From Paenibacillus aceti (lineage in GTDB: Bacteria; Bacillota; Bacilli; Paenibacillales; Paenibacillaceae): a stretch of 64,000 nt of DNA. This document shows positions 4,594 through 13,609 of the stretch, piece after piece. Within the stretch, counting starts at the first letter, position 1; each line of letters starts with the position of its first letter. The position numbers and the translations under genes were made by a program. The DNA is taken from the NCBI RefSeq assembly GCF_003614185.1, contig NZ_KZ987724.1, positions 2,796,979 to 2,860,978 of the forward strand, read 5' to 3'. The notes below the pieces were generated by a model, which ran no database searches, had not been told where the DNA came from, and saw only the letters and a program-made list of their open reading frames with translations.

Positions 4594-6213
4594 TTATTCG
4601 AATACTGGGTATCCGGTAATAATTCTATAACCCGCAGGCATTGAGGTGTCTTTAACCAAATACAACTGAGAGGTAATTAAATTATCGACCACTTGCTTTG
4701 AAGCAGAATTCCCTCCATTTTTAACATCTACACCTTTCCCAATCGAATATTCATGCTGGACCTTTGTAATCAAATAGCCCTTTGAATTCTCATCATTTAA
4801 CCAATCGGAAATTTGCTCTGCATTTTTTCTAATATTTTCTTGTGTTGCTTTTAATGCAGTACTCTTATTGTAAAAGGTAGTTGAAGGCACTCCTTCTTGA
4901 GCAGCACGCTTTAGCAAATCTTCATTAGTTTTACTTACATGTTTATCAAGTAAATGACCACCTTTAGACTCCATAGCATCTAGTATATCGTTACTAACAT
5001 TATTCCTAATAGTAGAAGCACTAAATTTATTCGTTCCCGCAATATCTTCTTCAAATCTCTTCCGATCTAACCTATACTGCTTCCTCTGAATATCGGGACT
5101 CTCCGCAGTCTCGATGCGATAAGTGTCTGGAACCTTGACCTTCATTCCACCTTCAGTAACCACCACGGCTCCGCCGTTCAGCTTAGGCAGTAGTTCGGAG
5201 AGCTGCTTGCTCAGTTTGCCGGATATCTTAACTCCCGATTTTACTGCTCCTTCCACTAGCGTCAGAGCCAGAAAGGCCTTTACCAAGGCACTCCCATATC
5301 GTTTGCTCTCTTCGTAGTTAGCCTTCCCGCTCAATACTTTCTCCTGTAAATCATAGATATCCTGGAACGGGACCACGAACTCTTCTGCAGCCCCTTCTTT
5401 CAACGCTTCCTTGATATCTTCCAGGGTAATATCTCCATTGGTGATGGCCTTGGCTAGATCATAATATCCGGGCATCGTGTCTGTCCAGAACTTCGGATTC
5501 GTAGGATTGACAGACCAGACCTGCTTCACTAACCCGCTGCCTTCATCCCAAACCTGACTCACGATTCCATCCCCGACTCCTACCGAGGTCATCGCTACCC
5601 CAACCCCACTGGTTTTCACACCCGGATCATTCCAATAACCTAGTCCTCTCTCCGCATCTGCCAGCCCTATTAGCTCTTTCGTAATTAGTCCATCTACTTC
5701 AAATTCTTTACCCTCATGATAACCACTTAATTCACGCCATACGGCAAACAGGGTACTGTGATTATTGGCGATATACTGATAGCCTGCTACAGCAATTAGC
5801 AGCTCTTGATTATACTCACCGGTGACTTCTCCATGATACAGATTCATATCCTTAAGAAGCTGCTGCATCTTCCGGATGTCTTCCTCAGCGACTAATTGAT
5901 TATACTTCTCTAACTGTTGCTCTAGCTGCTGACGATGAAGTACCTTTACCTCCAGCTCGTCATATCTCTGACGAAGCACATCTAATTCAACTTCTCCCAG
6001 CATCCCCTGCTCCAGCAGGGCTCTGATCTCTTCATCATCTAACAGCAGCGATCGGTCATTCTTTAACGGATTGTATCTACAGGCTTCCAGTAACCCTCCT
6101 TGATAAAAATCACTCAGATCGATGCCTTTGCCTTCGTTATACCATTCCCCCGATACCCCCATTTCTTCGAGCTTCTTCCGCTGGGCTTCGGCATATTGAT
6201 GAGCCGATTCCAT
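4594..6213 (-). pseudogene. Polymorphic toxin, C-terminal part with RNase A-like tip
   Basis: This is the second half of a toxin gene whose first half is at 6265-7008; the break is the 47-bp repeat tract. The open frame codes for 539 residues if read from an ATG inside the tract, which has no ribosome site. A helical, coiled-coil-rich segment comes first (Gln/Glu/Leu-rich to about residue 120), then a pre-toxin region (about 130-350). The last 150 residues carry GGHLLDKHV, a second-half STTFYNKSTALKATQENI stretch and the closing GYRIITGYPV. These match the bacterial CdiA-CT RNase A-like toxin domain, where the first His pair is catalytic. It should degrade RNA in target cells. As sequenced it can probably not be made as a full-length exported protein. 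Confidence 0.65.
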
Positions 6214-6367
6214 GTATTCACGATGGAATGGGCTTCGGCATATTGATGAGCCGATTCCATGTATTCACGATGGAATGGGCTTCGGCATATTGATGAGCCG
6301 ATTCCATGTATTCACGATGGAATGGGCTTCGGCATATTGATGAGCCGATTCCATGTATTCACGATGG
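6183..6367 (-). repeat. 47-bp tandem repeat, about four copies, inside toxin gene
   Basis: The unit beginning GGGCTTCGGCATATTGATGA recurs at 6183, 6230, 6277 and 6324 with a period of exactly 47 bases and almost no mismatches; the last copy ends near 6367. Because 47 is not a multiple of three, successive copies are read in different frames. On the coding strand the first copy is in frame, the second is shifted, and the third opens with CCA TCG TGA. Only a single copy would join the two halves of the toxin gene in frame. Confidence 0.95.
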
Positions 6368-7008
6368 CTATAGGCCTGATAAACAACATAAGCCTTCTGA
6401 CTACGAGCGATTTCCGTAAAGGCCTCGGCGATTTTTTCTAATTCCAGCTGGGCTAGTCTCTGTGCCATGGAATCCCCGTTTTGCATCGTTTGCAAAAGGC
6501 TGGCAATTCGCGGATCTTCTTTGACAGGAGATAGACGAACCAGGAGTCCCTGCCGCTGGATCGCTTGAAGCTGGTCGAATAGATTGGAGAATCCGATGGA
6601 ATCTGAATTAGGAGAATTCGTAGGGCCATATAAAATATTTCCTGTAAGATTCTGCAACGGAGCAAATGGAGAGTTCTGATCGAAGTAAGGTGTGGATATC
6701 TGTGATTGGGTCAATTTCCCGGCTTGTCTATCGGTATCTGCATAATGATTGGCGGCATACTTCAGGCCTCTTATCTTTTCTCTGAGCTGCTCATCGATAT
6801 GCCTGGCAAGCATTTCAATCTCACGGAGCAGGCTCGCGGTCTCTTGGGTAGCTGTGCGCAAATCATACTCCGAGTAATTCGCTTCTGTATCATGGAGCAG
6901 ACGATTCACATCTCTGGACATACCGGTAATTTCCTGTTCCATGGTCTGGCGCAAATGCTCCACGATACTAGCCAAGTGGTCGAGCCGGTCAAGATCTATC
7001 TTTTGAAT
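6265..7008 (-). pseudogene. LXG/WXG-like N-terminal part of the toxin
   Basis: This fragment codes for the export half of the polymorphic toxin. It is almost entirely helical (RLDHLASIVEHLRQTMEQEI and similar heptad-like stretches in residues 1-95), without a signal peptide, as in LXG proteins that leave by the type VII (Esx/Yuk) system. No type VII component is in the window. The frame runs into the 47-bp repeat and ends in shifted copies (NTWNRLINMPKPIPS). A strong AGGAGG site at about 7017-7022 is followed nine bases later by ATT, not ATG; the frame can be extended to a GTG at 7029, but that overlaps the ribosome site. So the original start may have mutated from ATG to ATT. Confidence 0.6.
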
Positions 7009-7289
7009 GGAAGGGCACCTCCTGTACACGCGCTATTCACTTCATAATTTTGGGAATTCACATGGTGTAAGGGAAGAAGCCAAAAATTAATATCGTATGA
7101 GGATTAAGCGGAGTTGTGTTACACATATTCTACCAATATGTATGAGATGATACAATATTATCCTGTATATTCTTGTTCTGGACTAAAGGGCAGTATCTCT
7201 ATATTTCTATCTCTTTCTTATACCAATATCTAGGATTACCCGCCTATATAAAAGAAATAGACCGCCCTACCTATGATATGCTCCCATCA
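7009..7289. other. Upstream region of the toxin gene, no ORF
   Basis: AT-rich DNA between the toxin start and the IS element. It should hold the toxin promoter, unless the IS insertion separated the gene from it; no clear -35/-10 pair was picked out. With the IS left end it makes up a gene-free stretch of about 340 bases. Confidence 0.4.
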
Positions 7290-7347
7290 TAGTAGACAGT
7301 AGAAAAAAACAAAAACTTCTACTTCTATAATGATGGGAGTTTTTCTA

Positions 7348-8037
7348 ATGTCCAAAAAGAGTCCAATTTCTTTTGAGATCAAGTTACATGTCGTAGAACG
7401 TTGTCTTCAGAATGAAACTAACCCAACTCATGAAGCGAAACGGCTTGGGGTAGATAGGCACACCGTCACAGAATGGGTTAGAAAATATAAAGCAGATGGT
7501 TTTGAGGGATTAAAGAAGTCTAGAGGGTGGAAAGCCTATTCAAAGGATCTGAGGCTTACTGCAATCATGGATGTCCTATCCGGTAATCATTCCATACGGG
7601 AGGCGACGAAGAAATATCATATTTCGAGTAAAAGTGTTTTGACGAGATGGATTTCCAAGTATACTAGTGGGGAAGAAATGAAACCTACTCGTAAAGGAAA
7701 AGGACTATCTCATATGAATAAAGGACGTAAAACCACTCTCCAAGAACGTATTGAAATTGCTCAATATACGATCGCTAATGATTTCGATTATCAGAAGTCG
7801 ATTGAGAAATACAAAGTTTCTTATCAACAGGTGTATGCATGGGTTCGTAAATATCAATCTGGCGGTGAGGATGCGCTTCATGATCATCGGGGACGTAATA
7901 AGCCTGTAGAAGAGCTAAATGATCATGAACGGCTCAAGCTTCGGATCAAAGAACTAGAGGCGCGAAATGAGTACCTGGAAATGGAGAACGCCCTTGCAAA
8001 AAAGTTGGCAGAGATCCGGCGACGAAATACACGTTAA
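7348..8037 (+). CDS. IS3-type transposase OrfA (helix-turn-helix)
   Basis: A 229-residue DNA-binding protein of an IS3-type element. It contains successive helix-turn-helix units (HEAKRLGVDRHTVTEWVRKY near 25-50, a second near 70-100, a third near 140-170) and a C-terminal leucine-zipper-like helix (LKLRIKELEARNEYLEMENA). It binds the terminal repeats and is the N-terminal part of the OrfAB transposase. The ATG at 7348 is chosen because GGGAG lies eight bases upstream; an in-frame ATG at 7330 falls inside the left-end inverted repeat. The last codons contain A AAA AAG (7998-8004), where ribosomes can slip by -1 into orfB. Confidence 0.9.
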   Translation: MSKKSPISFEIKLHVVERCLQNETNPTHEAKRLGVDRHTVTEWVRKYKADGFEGLKKSRGWKAYSKDLRLTAIMDVLSGNHSIREATKKYHISSKSVLTRWISKYTSGEEMKPTRKGKGLSHMNKGRKTTLQERIEIAQYTIANDFDYQKSIEKYKVSYQQVYAWVRKYQSGGEDALHDHRGRNKPVEELNDHERLKLRIKELEARNEYLEMENALAKKLAEIRRRNTR

Positions 8038-8057
8038 CCTTAGTTCGACATGTAGAC

Positions 8058-8912
8058 TTGTATCAAGCCATCCAAGAACTGCACTCGGAGAAAGGCTACG
8101 CCATCACAAAGCTGTGTAAGCTAGCTGGAGTCGCTAGGTCTGCCTATTATAAATGGCTGAAATGGAAGCCATCCACCAGAGAACTTGAAATGATTTCACT
8201 CGCTAAGGAAGTAAAGCTGCGCTATGACAAGAGAAAAGGAGCACTCGGATACCGTCAAATCCGCACCCAATTAAACCGAAAACTCAAGAAAAATTACAAC
8301 AAAAAGCGTTACTATCGAATCATGTGTGCTCTTGGATTGAAAGCAGTCATTCGCAGGAAACGACCCAACTATGTGAAAGCTTCAGAAATTCATGTAGCGG
8401 AAAATGTAATGAACCGTGAATTTCAAGCAGATGCTCCTAATATGAAGTGGTGTACCGACGTTACAGAATTGAAGTACGGGAACGGTCGTAAAGCCTATCT
8501 GAGTGCTATTCTCGATGTATACGATAACTCTATCGTCTCATGGGTGTTAAGCCCCTCCAACAACAATAAACTCGTCATGGATACGGTGAAGAAAGCCTAC
8601 TGTAAGAATTCGGGGGTCACTCCACTTCTTCATAGCGATAGAGGCTTCCAATATACCTCACATGAGTATAATTGGCTCCATATAAAATACGGATTTATGA
8701 AAAGCATGTCTCGTGTAAGCCGATGCTTGGACAACCAACCTATTGAACGATTCTGGGGCACTTACAAATCAGAAAGCTATTATCTTACAAAGCACGATAC
8801 CTATGAAGACGTCCTCAAAGACGTTAAGGAATATATTCATTATTACAACAACTATCGCTATACAGAGTGTTTGGATGGCTTGTCACCTAACGAATACCGA
8901 CGTGCTGCATAA
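8058..8912 (+). CDS. IS3-type transposase OrfB (DDE integrase)
   Basis: The catalytic part of the transposase: an N-terminal HTH_21-like region (SEKGYAITKLCKLAGVARSA) and an rve/integrase core. The DDE residues can be seen: D in KWCTDVTELKY, D in LLHSDRGFQYTS, and E in NQPIERFWGTYKSESY. The listed start is a TTG without a ribosome site. The true product is almost surely the OrfAB fusion: from the slippery A AAA AAG at 7998-8004, the -1 frame (GTT GGC AGA...) is open without a stop through to this frame. The ORF is full length and shows no stop or lost catalytic residue. Confidence 0.92.
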   Translation: MYQAIQELHSEKGYAITKLCKLAGVARSAYYKWLKWKPSTRELEMISLAKEVKLRYDKRKGALGYRQIRTQLNRKLKKNYNKKRYYRIMCALGLKAVIRRKRPNYVKASEIHVAENVMNREFQADAPNMKWCTDVTELKYGNGRKAYLSAILDVYDNSIVSWVLSPSNNNKLVMDTVKKAYCKNSGVTPLLHSDRGFQYTSHEYNWLHIKYGFMKSMSRVSRCLDNQPIERFWGTYKSESYYLTKHDTYEDVLKDVKEYIHYYNNYRYTECLDGLSPNEYRRAA

Positions 8913-8921
8913 TGAAAAAAA

Positions 8922-8946
8922 CTCAGCTCGGTTTAACCGAGCTGAG
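8922..8946 (+). terminator. Hairpin terminator after orfB
   Basis: CTCAGCTCGGTT and AACCGAGCTGAG form a perfect 12-bp stem ten bases past the transposase stop. An A-run precedes it, giving a U-tract on the opposite strand, so it may also protect the element from outside transcription coming from the right. Confidence 0.7.
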
Positions 8947-9034: not shown

Positions 9035-9724
9035 TTATACGCTCTGCGCAAGTAATTCACTCATCGTAATAAAGTGGTAATTGCGACTTTTCAAGATCGG
9101 AATAACCCGGTCTACCAGTTCTACCGTCTGTTCTCTATTTCCCCCGGCGTCATGCAAGAGAATAATGGAGCCGTTGCAAACATGGCTTAAAACCTCTTCC
9201 GCCATTTTATCCACACCCGGCAATTCCCAATCATAAGCTTGCACATCCCTGGACCAAAGCGCAAATTTATATTGCAATGCTTCTACGACTCCCACAGTTT
9301 CCGGGCTGAATATCCCATAAGGGGGCCGGAACAATTTACATCTATAATCCACTATAGATTGAATCGCCTGCTCCGCCTCTAGAATCTCTCGTTCAATCGC
9401 TGCAAAATCCAGAGAGGTTAGGTCCGGATGCGAATACGTATGATTGCCGAGCTCATGCCCTTCTTTAGCAATCCGGCGTATGATCTCCGGGTGCTCGGTC
9501 GCGAATCTTCCAAAGATAAAAAATGTCGCCTTAGCCTGATGTTTATTCAATATATCGAGGATTTGCGGAGTATAGTTACTCGTCGGCCCATCATCAAAAG
9601 TGAAGCATACATAGGCTTCCTCGCTGTCGGACAGATGAACGCCCTGAATAACACGTGGATCGTCGATCCCTGTAAAAGCTTTGTCTTTGCATAGCTCAAT
9701 ATAATTATAGACTATAGAATGCAT
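9035..9724 (-). CDS. Polysaccharide deacetylase (NodB domain), cytosolic
   Basis: A 229-residue enzyme of carbohydrate esterase family 4, which removes N-acetyl groups from sugars with a divalent metal. The NodB motifs are all present: TFDDGP (residues about 43-48, catalytic base and metal Asp), HTYSHPDL (metal His pair), RPPYG and ILLHDAGG. Unlike most family members in Gram-positives it has no signal peptide or membrane anchor, so it should act on an intracellular substrate. It is the last gene of the minus-strand operon that begins at 13609, 45 bases after the discoidin protein gene. This suggests it tailors a cytosolic sugar intermediate made by the glycosyltransferase in the cluster. Substrate unknown. 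Confidence 0.85.
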   Translation of the reverse strand: MHSIVYNYIELCKDKAFTGIDDPRVIQGVHLSDSEEAYVCFTFDDGPTSNYTPQILDILNKHQAKATFFIFGRFATEHPEIIRRIAKEGHELGNHTYSHPDLTSLDFAAIEREILEAEQAIQSIVDYRCKLFRPPYGIFSPETVGVVEALQYKFALWSRDVQAYDWELPGVDKMAEEVLSHVCNGSIILLHDAGGNREQTVELVDRVIPILKSRNYHFITMSELLAQSV

Positions 9725-9769
9725 ATTCCCCTCACCATCCCGAACGACGACGGCGCAGCCATCATGATC

Positions 9770-11362
9770 TCATTTGAAAATAGACACGCTCCAAAGCGAG
9801 TAACCAAAACGGGTCGCTTTTTCCTCACAATATATTCTGATATATCTTCCATATCCTTGGATATCTGTAATTTGCTCGATCCCGCCCTGACCGTTATTCC
9901 TTCTATAAATATCTGTCCATTGCTTCGCGTCATTTGAGCTTTGGATTGTATATTTCCGGGCATAGGCCGCCTCCCAGTTCAGTACGACGGTAGAGAACCT
10001 GGTTGCCTGCCCAAGATCAACATAGATCCATGACACTTCCTCCTCGAACACACTGCTCCATCTCGTCTCTGCCACACCGTCTACGATATTATCCTTGCAG
10101 AACGTTATACCATCTTCGGAAGAAGCAACAACCGGCTTGTACAACGCCAAATTCTCAGTTGGATTAGGATTGATAGTGATTAGACTTACCAGACTAGGCT
10201 CGCTCACATTTCCAAACACATCTCTCGCTCGGACTGCGATAGCATAAGTTCTTTCAGGAGTTACCTGGTTAATCGTACCGTGCAACTGCTTGGAGTCGCC
10301 TACCAGCTCCCCGTCCTTAAAAATCTCATAGGAGGTGACCCAAAGATGATCCTCCGGCTCGTCCCATGCGATCTTCATATTCGTATTATTCGAATCGAGC
10401 AGAACTGGCTTCCCAGGGCGCCCTGGTCTGAACCTCGAAGTATCGATTACGCCAGCCTTGAGTAAATGCAGCGCCTCTCGCTCCATCCGTTTTATTTTTA
10501 GAATCAAGTCCAGGCTCTTTTGATAGTCATAGGTTCTGGTCACCGCAGCCTTCATGAAAGTCAGCTTAAGTATCTCTACATTTCTGGATATGACCATATA
10601 CAGATCGTGATACCTCTCGTGGAAGCCGTATTTCAACAAAGCCTTGGCAAATAAAAACCGCGAACCGGCAAGGATACTCAGTGCATCATCTAAGTGGGGG
10701 TATAGTTCATGGAGTTCTGATCCAACCTGACCATCGCTCTGGAGAAGTGCTATGAAGTAGTCGAAGAAGATTAAGCCATCCGTGTAATTATGAATATAGG
10801 CCTCTAATTTGCTGCGCAGCTTGTCCACATCCGGGCCTGCTACAGTCTCAAAGAACAAGAAATCTTTATGGATCGGCAAAAGATTATTACACATCGTCGC
10901 CAGATCAGCCTCATCGTAGAAGAGCTCTGGATAAAGAGGGATATCCTGAATTCTATATTGATGGCTCTCATTATAATAGTCGGTGATCATGATGGAATGT
11001 ATTGAGGCCGCTTCCAGATTCAGATTATGCAGTACATCCTCAGCGTTAACCCATACGAATACGCCCTTATTATTGTTCAATAGCTCTAACAGCTTATCCT
11101 TCACATCCGCAAATTGCTGGAATAGAACCCGGATCGGCCTTAGACCAAGGTCTTGCATATCTGATTCTCGCAAAATATTGGACGGAAACCGCCATTTCCG
11201 TTTTCTGAGCCTGATCATTTCATGAAACACCTTGTCGCTGCTCTCCATCGCTTTGTATCCATAATAATCGACGGGCATCCCGCTAGCTTTCAGGTAGTTG
11301 ATGACTTGTATGGTCCTGCAGTCCAAATAATTTAGCGAAAAATTTTTGAAAACAATCTCCAA
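9770..11362 (-). CDS. BtrH-like domain fused to fibronectin III and discoidin (F5/8C) domains
   Basis: A 530-residue protein without a signal peptide. Residues 1-330 show a layout like BtrH-type proteins: Cys15 in LDCRTIQVINYL at the start of a helix, then GVFVWVNAEDV, then a His in HSIMITDYY followed by YRIQD, a possible Cys-His-Asp set. The match is weak and is my inference, supported by the clearer BtrH-like gene at 12617. Residues about 335-410 form a fibronectin III domain (IAWDEPEDHLWVTSYEIFKD, TYAIAVRARD). Residues about 415-530 form a discoidin domain that normally binds sugars (NIVDGVAETRWSS, WIYVDLG, YGRYIRIY). It lies 17 bases after the glycosyltransferase gene. A sugar-binding module on an acyl-transfer enzyme would suit acylation of a glycan or aminosugar. 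Confidence 0.6.
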   Translation of the reverse strand: MEIVFKNFSLNYLDCRTIQVINYLKASGMPVDYYGYKAMESSDKVFHEMIRLRKRKWRFPSNILRESDMQDLGLRPIRVLFQQFADVKDKLLELLNNNKGVFVWVNAEDVLHNLNLEAASIHSIMITDYYNESHQYRIQDIPLYPELFYDEADLATMCNNLLPIHKDFLFFETVAGPDVDKLRSKLEAYIHNYTDGLIFFDYFIALLQSDGQVGSELHELYPHLDDALSILAGSRFLFAKALLKYGFHERYHDLYMVISRNVEILKLTFMKAAVTRTYDYQKSLDLILKIKRMEREALHLLKAGVIDTSRFRPGRPGKPVLLDSNNTNMKIAWDEPEDHLWVTSYEIFKDGELVGDSKQLHGTINQVTPERTYAIAVRARDVFGNVSEPSLVSLITINPNPTENLALYKPVVASSEDGITFCKDNIVDGVAETRWSSVFEEEVSWIYVDLGQATRFSTVVLNWEAAYARKYTIQSSNDAKQWTDIYRRNNGQGGIEQITDIQGYGRYIRIYCEEKATRFGYSLWSVSIFK

Positions 11363-11379
11363 CAGGATCTCCCCTTGTT

Positions 11380-12282
11380 CTAGGCTAAGTCAACAGGTAC
11401 CCCCGTCTTCTGCTCTTCCAGCAATAATCGATTCAGCTTCACATCATCGTCGAATTCAGTCCATAATTTCACGACTCTGGTCTGGTACTTCTTAAGCAGA
11501 TATATCTTCTTCTCATCGATATGACGGTCTGCGACATCACTCTCATTGACGAAGTCGAACTCTTTTTTATGCGGGTAATGAATGCTCTTAGCGTCGCGGG
11601 CGAGGATGAACTGGGCTCCATATTTTTGCATCGCCAAGCCGATATCGCAATCCTCTCCTCCCCAACTGGTAAAGCTCTCATCGAACATCCCGACATCGAT
11701 TAATGCTGCTCTGCTCATCGATACATGACAGGTCCAGAAAAGTACAAACGGTGCCGGTAATTTACTGATATCATCTGAAAATTCCGTGTAAAACTTCTCT
11801 CTTATATCAAGGATCTGCTTACGGTCCAATACCTCAATCGCATCCTCAATCGTATGGCTATCCACGATATGAATAATGTCCTGCTTGTTGCTCTCCACAA
11901 CATCAAAGCCATATACATATCCAACAACGGCACAGGGTCTGGCATGGCTCTGATGAATACGAATATGCTCGTTCAGAGCATCCGGATGCAGGATAATCCC
12001 ATTATCAATAAAGACGCATATATCGCCCTTGGCTTTTCTAATCCCCATATTTCTTGCGGCGGCCGCCCTGAACCCCTGATCCTCCTGGAACTGATAGATG
12101 ATATGAAGGCGATCCTGATATTCACAGACCAGCGAAAAAGTATCTTCACTAGAACCATCATCACATACGAGCACTTCATAATCATCTCTAGGCAGGTCTT
12201 GTTGAACCAGCGAATCAAGCGAACGTCTCAACCCGGCAAGTCGATTGTAGGTTGGAATAATAACCGATATCACAGGTTTCAT
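11380..12282 (-). CDS. Glycosyltransferase family 2
   Basis: A 300-residue GT-A fold glycosyltransferase. It opens with VISVIIPTYNRLAGLRRSLD and VCDDGSSEDT (nucleotide-sugar binding Asp). At the usual DxD position it has IDNG, and FTSWGGEDCDIGLAM (about 223-237) carries the ED pair that acts as catalytic base and is typical of the galactosyltransferase-like C-terminal domain of chondroitin-type GT2 enzymes. A late His (IHYPHKK) may complete the metal site. There is no membrane helix, so it is cytosolic. It sits between the acyl carrier protein and discoidin genes in a tightly spaced operon. The acceptor is unknown; the neighbours suggest a small molecule or carrier-bound substrate rather than a wall polymer. 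Confidence 0.88.
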   Translation of the reverse strand: MKPVISVIIPTYNRLAGLRRSLDSLVQQDLPRDDYEVLVCDDGSSEDTFSLVCEYQDRLHIIYQFQEDQGFRAAAARNMGIRKAKGDICVFIDNGIILHPDALNEHIRIHQSHARPCAVVGYVYGFDVVESNKQDIIHIVDSHTIEDAIEVLDRKQILDIREKFYTEFSDDISKLPAPFVLFWTCHVSMSRAALIDVGMFDESFTSWGGEDCDIGLAMQKYGAQFILARDAKSIHYPHKKEFDFVNESDVADRHIDEKKIYLLKKYQTRVVKLWTEFDDDVKLNRLLLEEQKTGVPVDLA

Positions 12283-12324
12283 ATCTATCTGGCCTCCTTT
12301 AGTATTCGCTAGAATGAACAGAGC

Positions 12325-12576
12325 TTAGTGAACCTTCTGATGCTCATGAATATATTTCACAATATTATTAAATGTAGTGAGCTTTCCGGCGAGCAAATCC
12401 TCATCCTTGATTTTAAATCCGAACTCATTGGAAATATCATTCAACATTTGCACATAAGAGATCGAATCAAAGCCGAAGAAGTCGTCAATGCTGTCATTCT
12501 TCTCATTCTCGGAAATCGACACACCATGTTTCAAAAAGATACTGTTTAGCTTCTGTAATACTCTCTCATCCATCAT
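12325..12576 (-). CDS. Stand-alone acyl carrier protein
   Basis: An 83-residue acidic, four-helix protein with the 4'-phosphopantetheine attachment motif at GFDSISYVQML: the Ser in DSI is the modified residue, preceded by Phe-Asp instead of the common Gly-Xaa-Asp or Leu. It belongs to the discrete ACP class of specialised biosynthesis, as in the butirosin carrier protein BtrI, not the fatty-acid AcpP. No ligase, ketosynthase, condensation domain or phosphopantetheinyl transferase is encoded nearby, so its loading enzyme must be elsewhere. Several ATG codons are possible (12585, 12576, 12573); 12576 has the best distance from AAAGGG. It is 42 bases upstream of the glycosyltransferase gene. Confidence 0.85.
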   Translation of the reverse strand: MMDERVLQKLNSIFLKHGVSISENEKNDSIDDFFGFDSISYVQMLNDISNEFGFKIKDEDLLAGKLTTFNNIVKYIHEHQKVH

Positions 12577-12616
12577 CCATCCCATTCCCTTTCTAAATGT
12601 TTTCTAAATTCTATAG

Positions 12617-13609
12617 TTATTGTTCATTTGCTACCGTGGACCACATATCTTGCTCGATCATCAGTAATTCCTGGGCCTTAGCCCGGATCAATGGAGCATC
12701 TATATCTTTATCCTCCGACACCAGCTTGTTAATAAATATTTGCTTGATCATCTTCCAGCCAAATTTGAGCTTCTTTGTGCTTTTAATAACATACTGATGT
12801 AGCGGTTCGTCGATGAGTTGCAGCTCGATTAGCTTATTGAATAACAGCTCGTTCCCGAGGTGCCGATTCTCAATAATATTAATTCCGATTAAGGCAATTC
12901 TTATATATTCATCTATTTCCGGTTTGTGTTCCTCTTTAAAGTTCCATAATCCATCGAAAGAAAATGCAGATAGCTCCTCTGCCAATCTCTTCGCATGATC
13001 GATCACTTCCGACTTATCTAATTGATAGGGGGCCGGTTCCTCCTCGATTTCAAATATATAAGCATGCGGCAGTTCATAATCTGGCTCAGTCATTGCCCAT
13101 GAATTCGTAAAAGCCTGGATCACCCGCTCTTCCGGGATGAAATGAACCCCGTATCCATCGATATCATCATCCAATGCGGAATACAGCTTCCTCTGCAGAT
13201 CGAACCCATTCACTATCGCATAATGGCTCATATGAAACCGATCCCAGGCGATATTCTTGGGCAGCCAATAGAATAAATCGACATTCAGTTTAATCCACTT
13301 CTGATTGGAAATCATTCCACGCAGCTCGGTCAAAAATTGAGCGGGGTCCTCGAAAAATACCGGGGTTTCCCCTTTAATCACTCTGCTCAATACAAAGTTA
13401 TCCCAATCATCGGCATAATCCAGTACCTCGAGGGTAGGGGTGATAAATTCCATATCCATAAAAGCGCCCCAACTCTTGTAAGAGTAGTTGTTCATATAGG
13501 CTGCCGACGCATAGCTGGGATCAACACTCGTAGCAATCGAATAGGCCGAATTTAATATACAGTTCATCCAGAACTCATTGTACGGTACTAACTTCCTGAA
13601 ATATTCCAT
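12617..13609 (-). CDS. BtrH-like acyltransferase/hydrolase protein
   Basis: A 330-residue cytosolic protein, first gene of the operon. The N-terminal half resembles the BtrH N-terminal domain: a Cys in FWMNCILNSAYSIA (about residue 17), ETPVFFEDPAQFL, then VDLFYWLP and HMSHYAIVNGFD, with an Asp-rich DDDIDGYGVHFIP afterwards. Cys, His and Asp would form a papain-like set. In butirosin synthesis BtrH moves an acyl chain from the carrier protein BtrI to the amine of an aminoglycoside; the acyl carrier protein gene 31 bases downstream makes a similar ACP-dependent transfer plausible. The C-terminal half is helical and unassigned. Ribosome site AAGAGGCGGG before ATG. Family call by eye only. Confidence 0.65.
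   Translation of the reverse strand: MEYFRKLVPYNEFWMNCILNSAYSIATSVDPSYASAAYMNNYSYKSWGAFMDMEFITPTLEVLDYADDWDNFVLSRVIKGETPVFFEDPAQFLTELRGMISNQKWIKLNVDLFYWLPKNIAWDRFHMSHYAIVNGFDLQRKLYSALDDDIDGYGVHFIPEERVIQAFTNSWAMTEPDYELPHAYIFEIEEEPAPYQLDKSEVIDHAKRLAEELSAFSFDGLWNFKEEHKPEIDEYIRIALIGINIIENRHLGNELLFNKLIELQLIDEPLHQYVIKSTKKLKFGWKMIKQIFINKLVSEDKDIDAPLIRAKAQELLMIEQDMWSTVANEQ

What the first reader, a model, noticed from the sequence alone, without database searches (positions are those of the whole stretch)
9035..13609. Compact five-gene operon: two BtrH-like proteins, orphan ACP, GT2 and NodB deacetylase
Seen: five minus-strand genes with gaps of 17-45 bases, a shared promoter, a carrier protein with a DSI attachment site, a GT2 with GGED, and a NodB enzyme. 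Known: BtrH moves an acyl group from an ACP onto an aminoglycoside. Inference: this operon makes an acylated, partly deacetylated glycan or aminosugar. No ketosynthase, adenylation or condensation domain is encoded, so the ACP must be loaded by an enzyme elsewhere. I know of no described pathway with this set.
Basis: partly seen in the sequence, partly recalled or inferred. Interest (0 to 1): 0.75.

Follow-up and report, generated by a model that had tools for sequence, protein, structure and literature searches.

The report
Putative acyl-transfer operon in Paenibacillus
Five neighbouring genes of a Paenibacillus bacterium look like a small, undescribed pathway that builds a sugar-containing compound and attaches a carrier-bound acid to it, using two distant relatives of enzymes already known to do that last step for an antibiotic and for an iron-scavenging molecule.

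Summary
The five minus-strand genes are real, at the given coordinates, 17-45 bases apart: BtrH1 (330 aa), ACP (86), GT2 (300), P2 (530; BtrH-like domain + Fn3 + F5/8C) and a NodB-type deacetylase (229). The same set in the same order occurs in P. solani and P. paeoniae. Neither long protein matches Pfam BtrH_N itself, but their families match BtrH families by profile comparison (E 8e-12 and 4e-9; two unrelated controls 0.17 and 0.25) and keep a Cys-His-Asp triad. More weakly both match DUF6005, the family of AsbE, a characterised carrier-to-amine acyltransferase. P2 relatives often sit beside carrier proteins, and two are fused into assembly lines: BtrH-like-Fn3-F5/8C-A-PCP, and KS-PCP-C...PCP-BtrH-like. 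By hydropathy all five window proteins look cytosolic. Best reading: GT2 adds a sugar, the deacetylase uncovers an amine, and the acyltransferases move acid(s) from the ACP onto amines. Acceptor, acid and loader are unknown, and GT2 lacks the second Asp of its DxD motif. The 'shared promoter' is not above chance. New variant of a known kind; P2 in the place of a condensation domain is the interesting part. No structure prediction could be run.

The parts
12617..13609 (-). BtrH1: BtrH-superfamily carrier-dependent acyltransferase (predicted), triad C17/H129/D148
   Evidence: hhalign to BtrH_N proteins E 8e-12, to DUF6005/AsbE family E 6e-7; no Pfam hit of its own
12325..12585 (-). ACP: discrete carrier protein, attachment motif DSI (D40-S41-I42)
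   Evidence: PF00550 E 1e-7; alignment
11380..12282 (-). GT2: family-2 glycosyltransferase without membrane segment, best solved relative chondroitin synthase 2z86/2z87; DxD reads D-N-G
9770..11362 (-). P2: BtrH-superfamily domain (about residues 1-305, triad C15/H122/D140) + Fn3 (320-390, weak) + F5/8 type C (412-524)
   Evidence: fused relatives
9035..9724 (-). NodB-type (CE4) deacetylase, no signal peptide or membrane segment by hydropathy
   Evidence: PF01522 E 2.1e-40; motifs; hydropathy
8922..8946 (-). Terminator-like hairpin, 11 pairs then a T run, downstream of NodB

Best explanation
The operon encodes a small, cytosolic biosynthetic pathway. ACP is made holo and loaded with an acid by an enzyme encoded elsewhere (inferred). 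BtrH1 and P2 are two diverged members of the BtrH/AsbE superfamily: the active-site Cys takes the acyl group from the ACP thioester, helped by His and Asp, and passes it to an amine (inferred from homology and conserved residues). GT2 is proposed to add an N-acetylamino sugar to an acceptor, the NodB-type enzyme to remove the acetyl group and expose the amine, and one or both acyltransferases to acylate that amine; the F5/8C domain of P2 is proposed to hold the glycan-bearing acceptor. This is the logic of butirosin (glycosyltransfer, deacetylation, ACP, BtrH; recalled except where cited) with other enzyme families for the first two steps. Shown by sequence: gene set and order, superfamily membership, conserved triads, association with carrier proteins, lack of hydrophobic stretches. 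Inferred: direction of catalysis, acceptor, acid, loader.
For: Five-gene order in 3 species. Profile comparisons: BtrH1-BtrH_N 8e-12, P2-BtrH_N 3.6e-9, BtrH1-P2 1.3e-9, BtrH1-DUF6005 6e-7, BtrH_N-DUF6005 5e-9; two negative controls 0.17 and 0.25. P2 triad C 24, H 23, D 24 of 24; BtrH1 family H129 and D148 in 38 of 38, C17 in at least 90% (L055 has Gly). ACP next to BtrH1 in 9 of 9 close loci. Carrier proteins in the fetched stretch of 14 of 22 chosen P2 loci against 1 of 20 other regions (9 of 17 without seed loci). Fusions: BtrH-like-Fn3-F5/8C-A-PCP (L110); KS-PCP-C-...-PCP-BtrH-like (L128); BtrH_N after PKS and carrier domains (L138, L142, L144). In L109 a NodB relative (49%) lies 632 bases downstream of P2 on the same strand, with an AMP-ligase and an ACP within 8 kb. 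AsbE, of family DUF6005, moves an acid from carrier AsbD to spermidine (PMC6836290 and PMC11317620, passages). No hydrophobic segment in the five.
Against: The window's two long proteins give no BtrH_N hit at E<=10, and the whole genome gives none at E<=1e-10. The profile alignments cover the His and Asp but start after the Cys, whose equivalence rests on its conservation and position. P2-DUF6005 is weak (probability 60%, E 8.5e-5; not significant against one single DUF6005 sequence). GT2 has D-N-G instead of DxD in 7 of 7 close relatives. BtrH1+ACP occurs without GT2, P2 and NodB in the fetched stretches of L066, L067 and L095, and no NodB was found in those of L068-L071, so the five are not an obligate unit. 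8 of 22 P2 loci have no carrier protein in the stretch. No structure, no product.
Confidence: 0.55

Rival explanations
1. BtrH1 and/or P2 are release enzymes: they hydrolyse or cyclise the carrier-bound acyl chain (thioesterase-like, papain-type) rather than transferring it to an amine. GT2 and the deacetylase then tailor a released product.
For: In L128, L138, L142 and L144 the BtrH-like domain comes after the last carrier domain seen, where thioesterases usually stand. BtrH1 homologues directly follow an NRPS in 22 of 34 loci.
Against: In 22 of those 22 loci a thioesterase-like match follows BtrH1, in two (L073, L083) only as a fragment; in L110 the P2 unit stands before A-PCP, where a condensation domain usually stands. 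The characterised relatives BtrH and AsbE transfer to amines (PMC8430323 passage; PMC6836290 passage).
Confidence: 0.2
2. The operon decorates a cell-surface or spore glycan rather than a small molecule: GT2 extends a polysaccharide or lipid-linked sugar, the NodB-type enzyme deacetylates it and the acyltransferases acylate it.
For: Best solved GT2 relative is a polysaccharide synthase (2z86, E 4e-61); GT2 scores 142 bits against the EpsD exopolysaccharide model, below its cut-off of 370, and NodB 188.6 against PdaB, below its cut-off of 237.4; F5/8C is a carbohydrate-binding type of domain (recalled).
Against: No flippase or polymerase family among the five, no hydrophobic segment or signal peptide by hydropathy; P2 relatives lie in natural-product type clusters.
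Confidence: 0.15
3. A remnant: BtrH1, ACP and P2 were left from a larger NRPS/PKS cluster and the five genes no longer make a product.
For: BtrH1 homologues at 37-41% identity sit next to an NRPS in 22 of 34 loci; the operon is patchy and lies beside an IS3-type element.
Against: All five frames are open with most catalytic motifs kept (the GT2 DxD is the exception); same order in three species at 47-76% identity, which argues for selection.
Confidence: 0.1

Closest known systems
BtrH with its ACP, butirosin (PF14399 BtrH_N)
   Same: Papain-like acyltransferase working with a discrete ACP; remote homology from about residue 70-85 to the C-terminal end of the conserved region; similar His-Asp spacing and an N-terminal Cys. 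Acyl transfer to an amine of an aminoglycoside is described for BtrH (PMC10318531 and PMC8430323, passages).
   Different: Two such enzymes here; P2 carries Fn3 and F5/8C; no AMP-ligase or other acid-making gene in the operon; window proteins give no BtrH_N hit.
AsbC/AsbD/AsbE of petrobactin (AsbE = DUF6005, PF19468)
   Same: Carrier protein with an acyltransferase of the same superfamily that acylates a primary amine (PMC6836290, PMC11317620, passages); BtrH1-DUF6005 E 6e-7.
   Different: No ligase here; sugar enzymes present; P2-DUF6005 only E 8.5e-5.
Nod-factor genes nodC/nodB/nodF/nodA (recalled)
   Same: GT2, cytosolic NodB-type deacetylase, special ACP and an N-acyltransferase.
   Different: The acyltransferase is of the BtrH superfamily, not NodA; NodB scores 172.8 against a cut-off of 240 and GT2 31.2 against 550 for NodC.
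BtrH-family papain-like transacylases in predicted peptide-synthesis operons (PMC2922099, 2010)
   Same: That paper already proposes the BtrH family and a novel papain-like family as transacylases working with ACPs in such operons (passages).
   Different: The passages I saw mention no Fn3-F5/8C architecture, no GT2+NodB set and no fusion in the place of a condensation domain; I did not read the rest or its supplement.
Transglutaminase-type condensation catalyst of andrimid (recalled; only a search listing seen)
   Same: A cysteine enzyme of papain-like type doing the work of a condensation domain.
   Different: Different family; no comparison was run.

Membership tests
BtrH (PF14399) | Pfam BtrH_N match by the window proteins | tested here: not met
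   No hit at E<=10 for BtrH1; P2 only Fn3 and F5/8C. Family members with a match at E<=0.1: 22 of 31 and 10 of 24.
BtrH superfamily (wider) | Profile-level homology | tested here: met
   hhalign E 8e-12 (BtrH1) and 3.6e-9 (P2), probability 97.5 and 96.1, 244 and 236 columns; controls 0.17 and 0.25
BtrH superfamily (wider) | Cys-His-Asp triad | tested here: met
   BtrH1 C17/H129/D148; P2 C15/H122/D140 in 24, 23 and 24 of 24. The Cys lies outside the profile alignments.
BtrH superfamily (wider) | Papain-like fold | not tested
   20 structure-prediction attempts met a full queue (first, last)
BtrH (PF14399) | ACP-to-amine acyl transfer | not testable with these tools
   needs purified protein
AsbE (DUF6005, PF19468) | Pfam DUF6005 match | tested here: not met
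   No DUF6005 hit for the window proteins; remote profile match only
Nod factor synthesis | NodC and NodB equivalog cut-offs | tested here: not met
   NodB 172.8 of 240; NodC 31.2 of 550 bits
Nod factor synthesis | NodA acyltransferase | tested here: not met
CE4 / NodB-homology deacetylase | Pfam match and the five catalytic motifs | tested here: met
   138 bits, cut-off 23.1; TFDDGP, HTYSH, RPPYG, DW, LLHD
GT2 (GT-A, metal-dependent) | DxD motif | tested here: not met
   IDNGI in 7 of 7 close relatives, IDDDR in the distant L058
GT2 (GT-A, metal-dependent) | Family match and E-D motif | tested here: met
   PF00535 E 2e-24; 2z86 E 4e-61; GGED
Carrier protein (PF00550) | Score over cut-off and attachment Ser | tested here: met
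   32.5 bits, cut-off 20.8; DSI

The most novel reading that the evidence does not exclude
P2-type proteins are a new kind of condensation catalyst: a BtrH-superfamily cysteine domain joined to Fn3 and F5/8C that replaces the condensation domain of assembly lines (fused in front of A-PCP in L110, free-standing in the window). In the window it works with a second, freestanding BtrH-type enzyme, so that one ACP-bound acid is attached to a freshly deacetylated amino sugar: Nod-factor or butirosin logic rebuilt from other parts in a Gram-positive bacterium.
Probability: 0.25. Interest if true: 0.75.

Novelty: new variant of a known kind. Interest (0 to 1): 0.5.

Why it matters
Carrier-to-amine acyl transfer outside classical condensation domains is known from BtrH and AsbE. 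Here the same superfamily appears in Paenibacillus in two diverged forms within one five-gene operon, and one of them occurs as a built-in module of NRPS/PKS proteins. If the activity is confirmed, pathway-finding rules that look for KS or C domains would miss such clusters, and the five-gene set would be a compact system for asking how a papain-type enzyme chooses between acyl transfer and hydrolysis.

Tried and rejected
Pfam and NCBIfam on the window proteins alone gave nothing for BtrH1 and no papain-type hit for P2; families of relatives were needed. PDB sequence search with the BtrH1 family: 0 hits at E<=1. Plasmid collection: no match for BtrH1 at E<=1e-5. Structure prediction was tried 20 times and met a full queue each time, so no fold search was made. 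A long frame around BtrH1 in L041 was not taken as a fusion: it overlaps the NRPS frame on the same strand.

Rows dropped or chosen. A1 holds 31 of the 34 BtrH1 matches (L041, L052 and L063 left out); A5 adds seven loci. The 24-row P2 alignment leaves out L033, L034, L051, L113, L115, L116 and L124. The BtrH_N reference set holds 9 of the 14 matches (L138, L140, L142, L143, L144 left out). Of the 11 DUF6005 matches ten were aligned; L194 was left out because its frame began late.

Controls. The carrier HMM was seeded with sequences from five of the 22 loci (L108, whose ACP is that of L064, L109, L110, L117, L118); without them 9 of 17 have a carrier protein. The 12 of 12 for BtrH1 loci in that call is largely circular for the same reason; I rely on the adjacency by BLAST. 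That HMM missed the 91-residue carrier of L128 that Pfam found. The 20 control regions were picked by me at arbitrary places in 19 genomes, 17 of which also gave some of the 22 P2 loci. A single DUF6005 sequence against P2 gave nothing; against BtrH1 E 6e-6. Nod-factor membership was considered and not met.
Full report
Observation. The five genes stand as described, on the minus strand from 13609 down to 9035, with gaps of 31, 42, 17 and 45 bases. Pfam names three of them: carrier protein, GT2 and NodB-type deacetylase. A strong terminator-like hairpin follows at 8946-8922; promoter-like sites in the region are fewer than in shuffled sequence, so the shared promoter is only a presumption. An IS3-type transposase pair lies just beyond the end.

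Distribution. BtrH1 relatives occur in 32 of 296 genomes of the family at E<=1e-5 and in 8 of 398 genomes of the class at E<=1e-12, the window's own genome counted in both. A scan of the genome-contig collection gave 34 loci, all Paenibacillus by title. Sorted by neighbours: 2 have the same five genes in the same order (P. solani, P. paeoniae); 4 (P. arenosi, P. assamensis, P. agilis, strain SC116) have BtrH1+ACP with GT2, P2, a CE2-type esterase and a GH9 protein close by on both strands and no NodB in the stretch; 3 (L066, L067, L095) have BtrH1+ACP with other neighbours; 3 (L094, L096, L097) have 30-33% identical copies with a carrier gene within the fetched stretch; 22 have a 37-41% identical copy directly after an NRPS, 20 of these with thioesterase, acyltransferase and M20 peptidase matches (L073 and L083 lack the acyltransferase; domains of one example). 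In 9 of 9 loci with BtrH1 at least 54% identical the ACP is the next gene (BLAST E 2e-15 or better).

What the two long proteins are. The window's own sequences do not match BtrH_N, but 22 of 31 BtrH1-family members and 10 of 24 P2-family members do at E<=0.1, best 2.6e-5 and 1.3e-5; where bits were shown, for the P2 domain of L128, they were below the cut-off (22.4 against 29.7). Profile comparison shows the relation: BtrH1 to nine BtrH_N proteins 8e-12, P2 to the same set 3.6e-9, BtrH1 to P2 1.3e-9, each over 236-260 columns reaching the C-terminal end of the domain; unrelated controls 0.17 and 0.25. These alignments include the His and Asp but begin after the Cys. The triad is kept: P2 C15, H122 and D140 in 24, 23 and 24 of 24; BtrH1 H129 and D148 in 38 of 38 and C17 in at least 90%. 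DUF6005, the family of AsbE (PMC11317620, passages), matches BtrH_N at 5e-9, BtrH1 at 6e-7 and P2 at 8.5e-5 (probability 60%), and has invariant C6, H122 and D139. AsbE moves 3,4-dihydroxybenzoate from carrier AsbD to spermidine (PMC6836290, passage); BtrH is an ACP:aminoglycoside acyltransferase (PMC10318531, passage; PMC8430323, passages). So a carrier-dependent acyltransferase is the best-supported activity.

P2 in other places. Of 22 hand-picked P2 loci, 14 have a carrier protein in the fetched stretch (10-18 kb) against 1 of 20 other regions of genomes of the family (9 of 17 without the seed loci). In L109 a NodB relative (49%) lies 632 bases downstream of P2, with an AMP-ligase, an ACP and an ABC-2 transporter within 8 kb. 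In L118 P2 is followed by an ACP, in a stretch with radical SAM (Pfam), SDR and ketosynthase-type genes (BLAST). L050, L051 and L053 have both a BtrH1 and a P2 core near a hybrid synthase, whose domains in L053 are KS-ACP-C-A-PCP. Two fusions are direct: L110 is BtrH-like-Fn3-F5/8C-A-PCP in one 1177-residue frame, downstream of a PKS-like and a condensation-like protein (BLAST) and a GT2 (Pfam); L128 reads KS-PCP-C-...-PCP-BtrH-like, followed by a carrier gene. BtrH_N domains over the Pfam cut-off likewise follow PKS and carrier domains in L138, L142 and L144. In L110 the P2 unit stands where a condensation domain would be expected, which is the basis for the novel reading.

The sugar side. 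The deacetylase has the CE4 motifs and, like the other four proteins and the CE2 and GH9 proteins of L035, no hydrophobic segment or signal peptide by hydropathy. Its best solved relative is a peptidoglycan deacetylase, and 11 of the 31 solved sequences listed are so named; that such enzymes are usually secreted is recalled. GT2 is closest to chondroitin synthase among solved structures but reads D-N-G where that enzyme has D-C-D, in 7 of 7 close relatives, so its activity needs testing.

Loader. The genome has 14 carrier sites including this one and 13 stretches matching an AMP-ligase query, some in NRPS-sized frames. A cluster at 2.966-2.983 Mb, about 155 kb away, has two AMP-binding genes over the cut-off, three carrier sites, an AP_endonuc_2 gene and two proteins that match BtrH_N and DUF6005. 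Whether any of these serves the operon is unknown.

Literature. Nine searches were made. No title or abstract start that they listed names a pathway with this gene set; no search combined all five components, and the library lacks most subscription journals. PMC2922099 (passages) already proposes BtrH-family papain-like transacylases in peptide-synthesis operons, so the enzyme idea is known.

Noticed in passing
L110:8001-11534 (+): One frame of 1177 aa: BtrH-like domain, Fn3, F5/8C, AMP-binding, PP-binding; the P2 unit stands where a condensation domain would be expected.
   Followed up: yes
L128:7953-14657 (-): KS-PCP-C-...-PCP followed by a P2-type domain at the C-terminus (BtrH_N E 1.5e-4), then a carrier gene; the middle part reads like a FkbH/HAD region (by eye, not tested).
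   Followed up: partly
L138, L142, L144: BtrH_N domains fused after PKS and carrier domains.
   Followed up: partly
window 11380-12282: GT2 reads IDNGI at the DxD position in 7 of 7 close relatives.
   Followed up: partly
window 4594-7029 (-): Two adjacent ORFs, the downstream one with a CdiA-CT RNase A-type domain; near the end of one and at the start of the other the same ten residues occur, as if an insertion split the gene. Described only.
   Followed up: no
window 7330-8912 (+): IS3-type transposase pair directly downstream of the operon.
   Followed up: no
L183 (own genome, 2.966-2.983 Mb): Second carrier-protein cluster with AMP-binding genes, three carrier sites, a DegT-type aminotransferase and two proteins matching BtrH_N and DUF6005.
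   Followed up: partly
L032-L035 (= L068-L071): In four genomes a CE2-type esterase and a GH9 protein (no signal peptide by hydropathy in L035) lie between GT2 and P2; no NodB in the fetched stretch.
   Followed up: partly
L109, L121, L123, L124, L125, L127: An ABC transporter set (one ATPase, two permeases by clustering) recurs in 6 of the 20 loci; one permease of L109 is ABC2_membrane_6 by Pfam.
   Followed up: no
L117:3343-4086 (-): A YqcI/YcgG protein lies in the cluster with P2, AMP-ligase and ACP; PMC2922099 mentions that family in NRPS operons (passage).
   Followed up: no
L188:1186-2475 (+): A DUF6005 protein whose N-terminus looks like a carrier protein (by eye), i.e. a possible carrier-acyltransferase fusion.
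   Followed up: no
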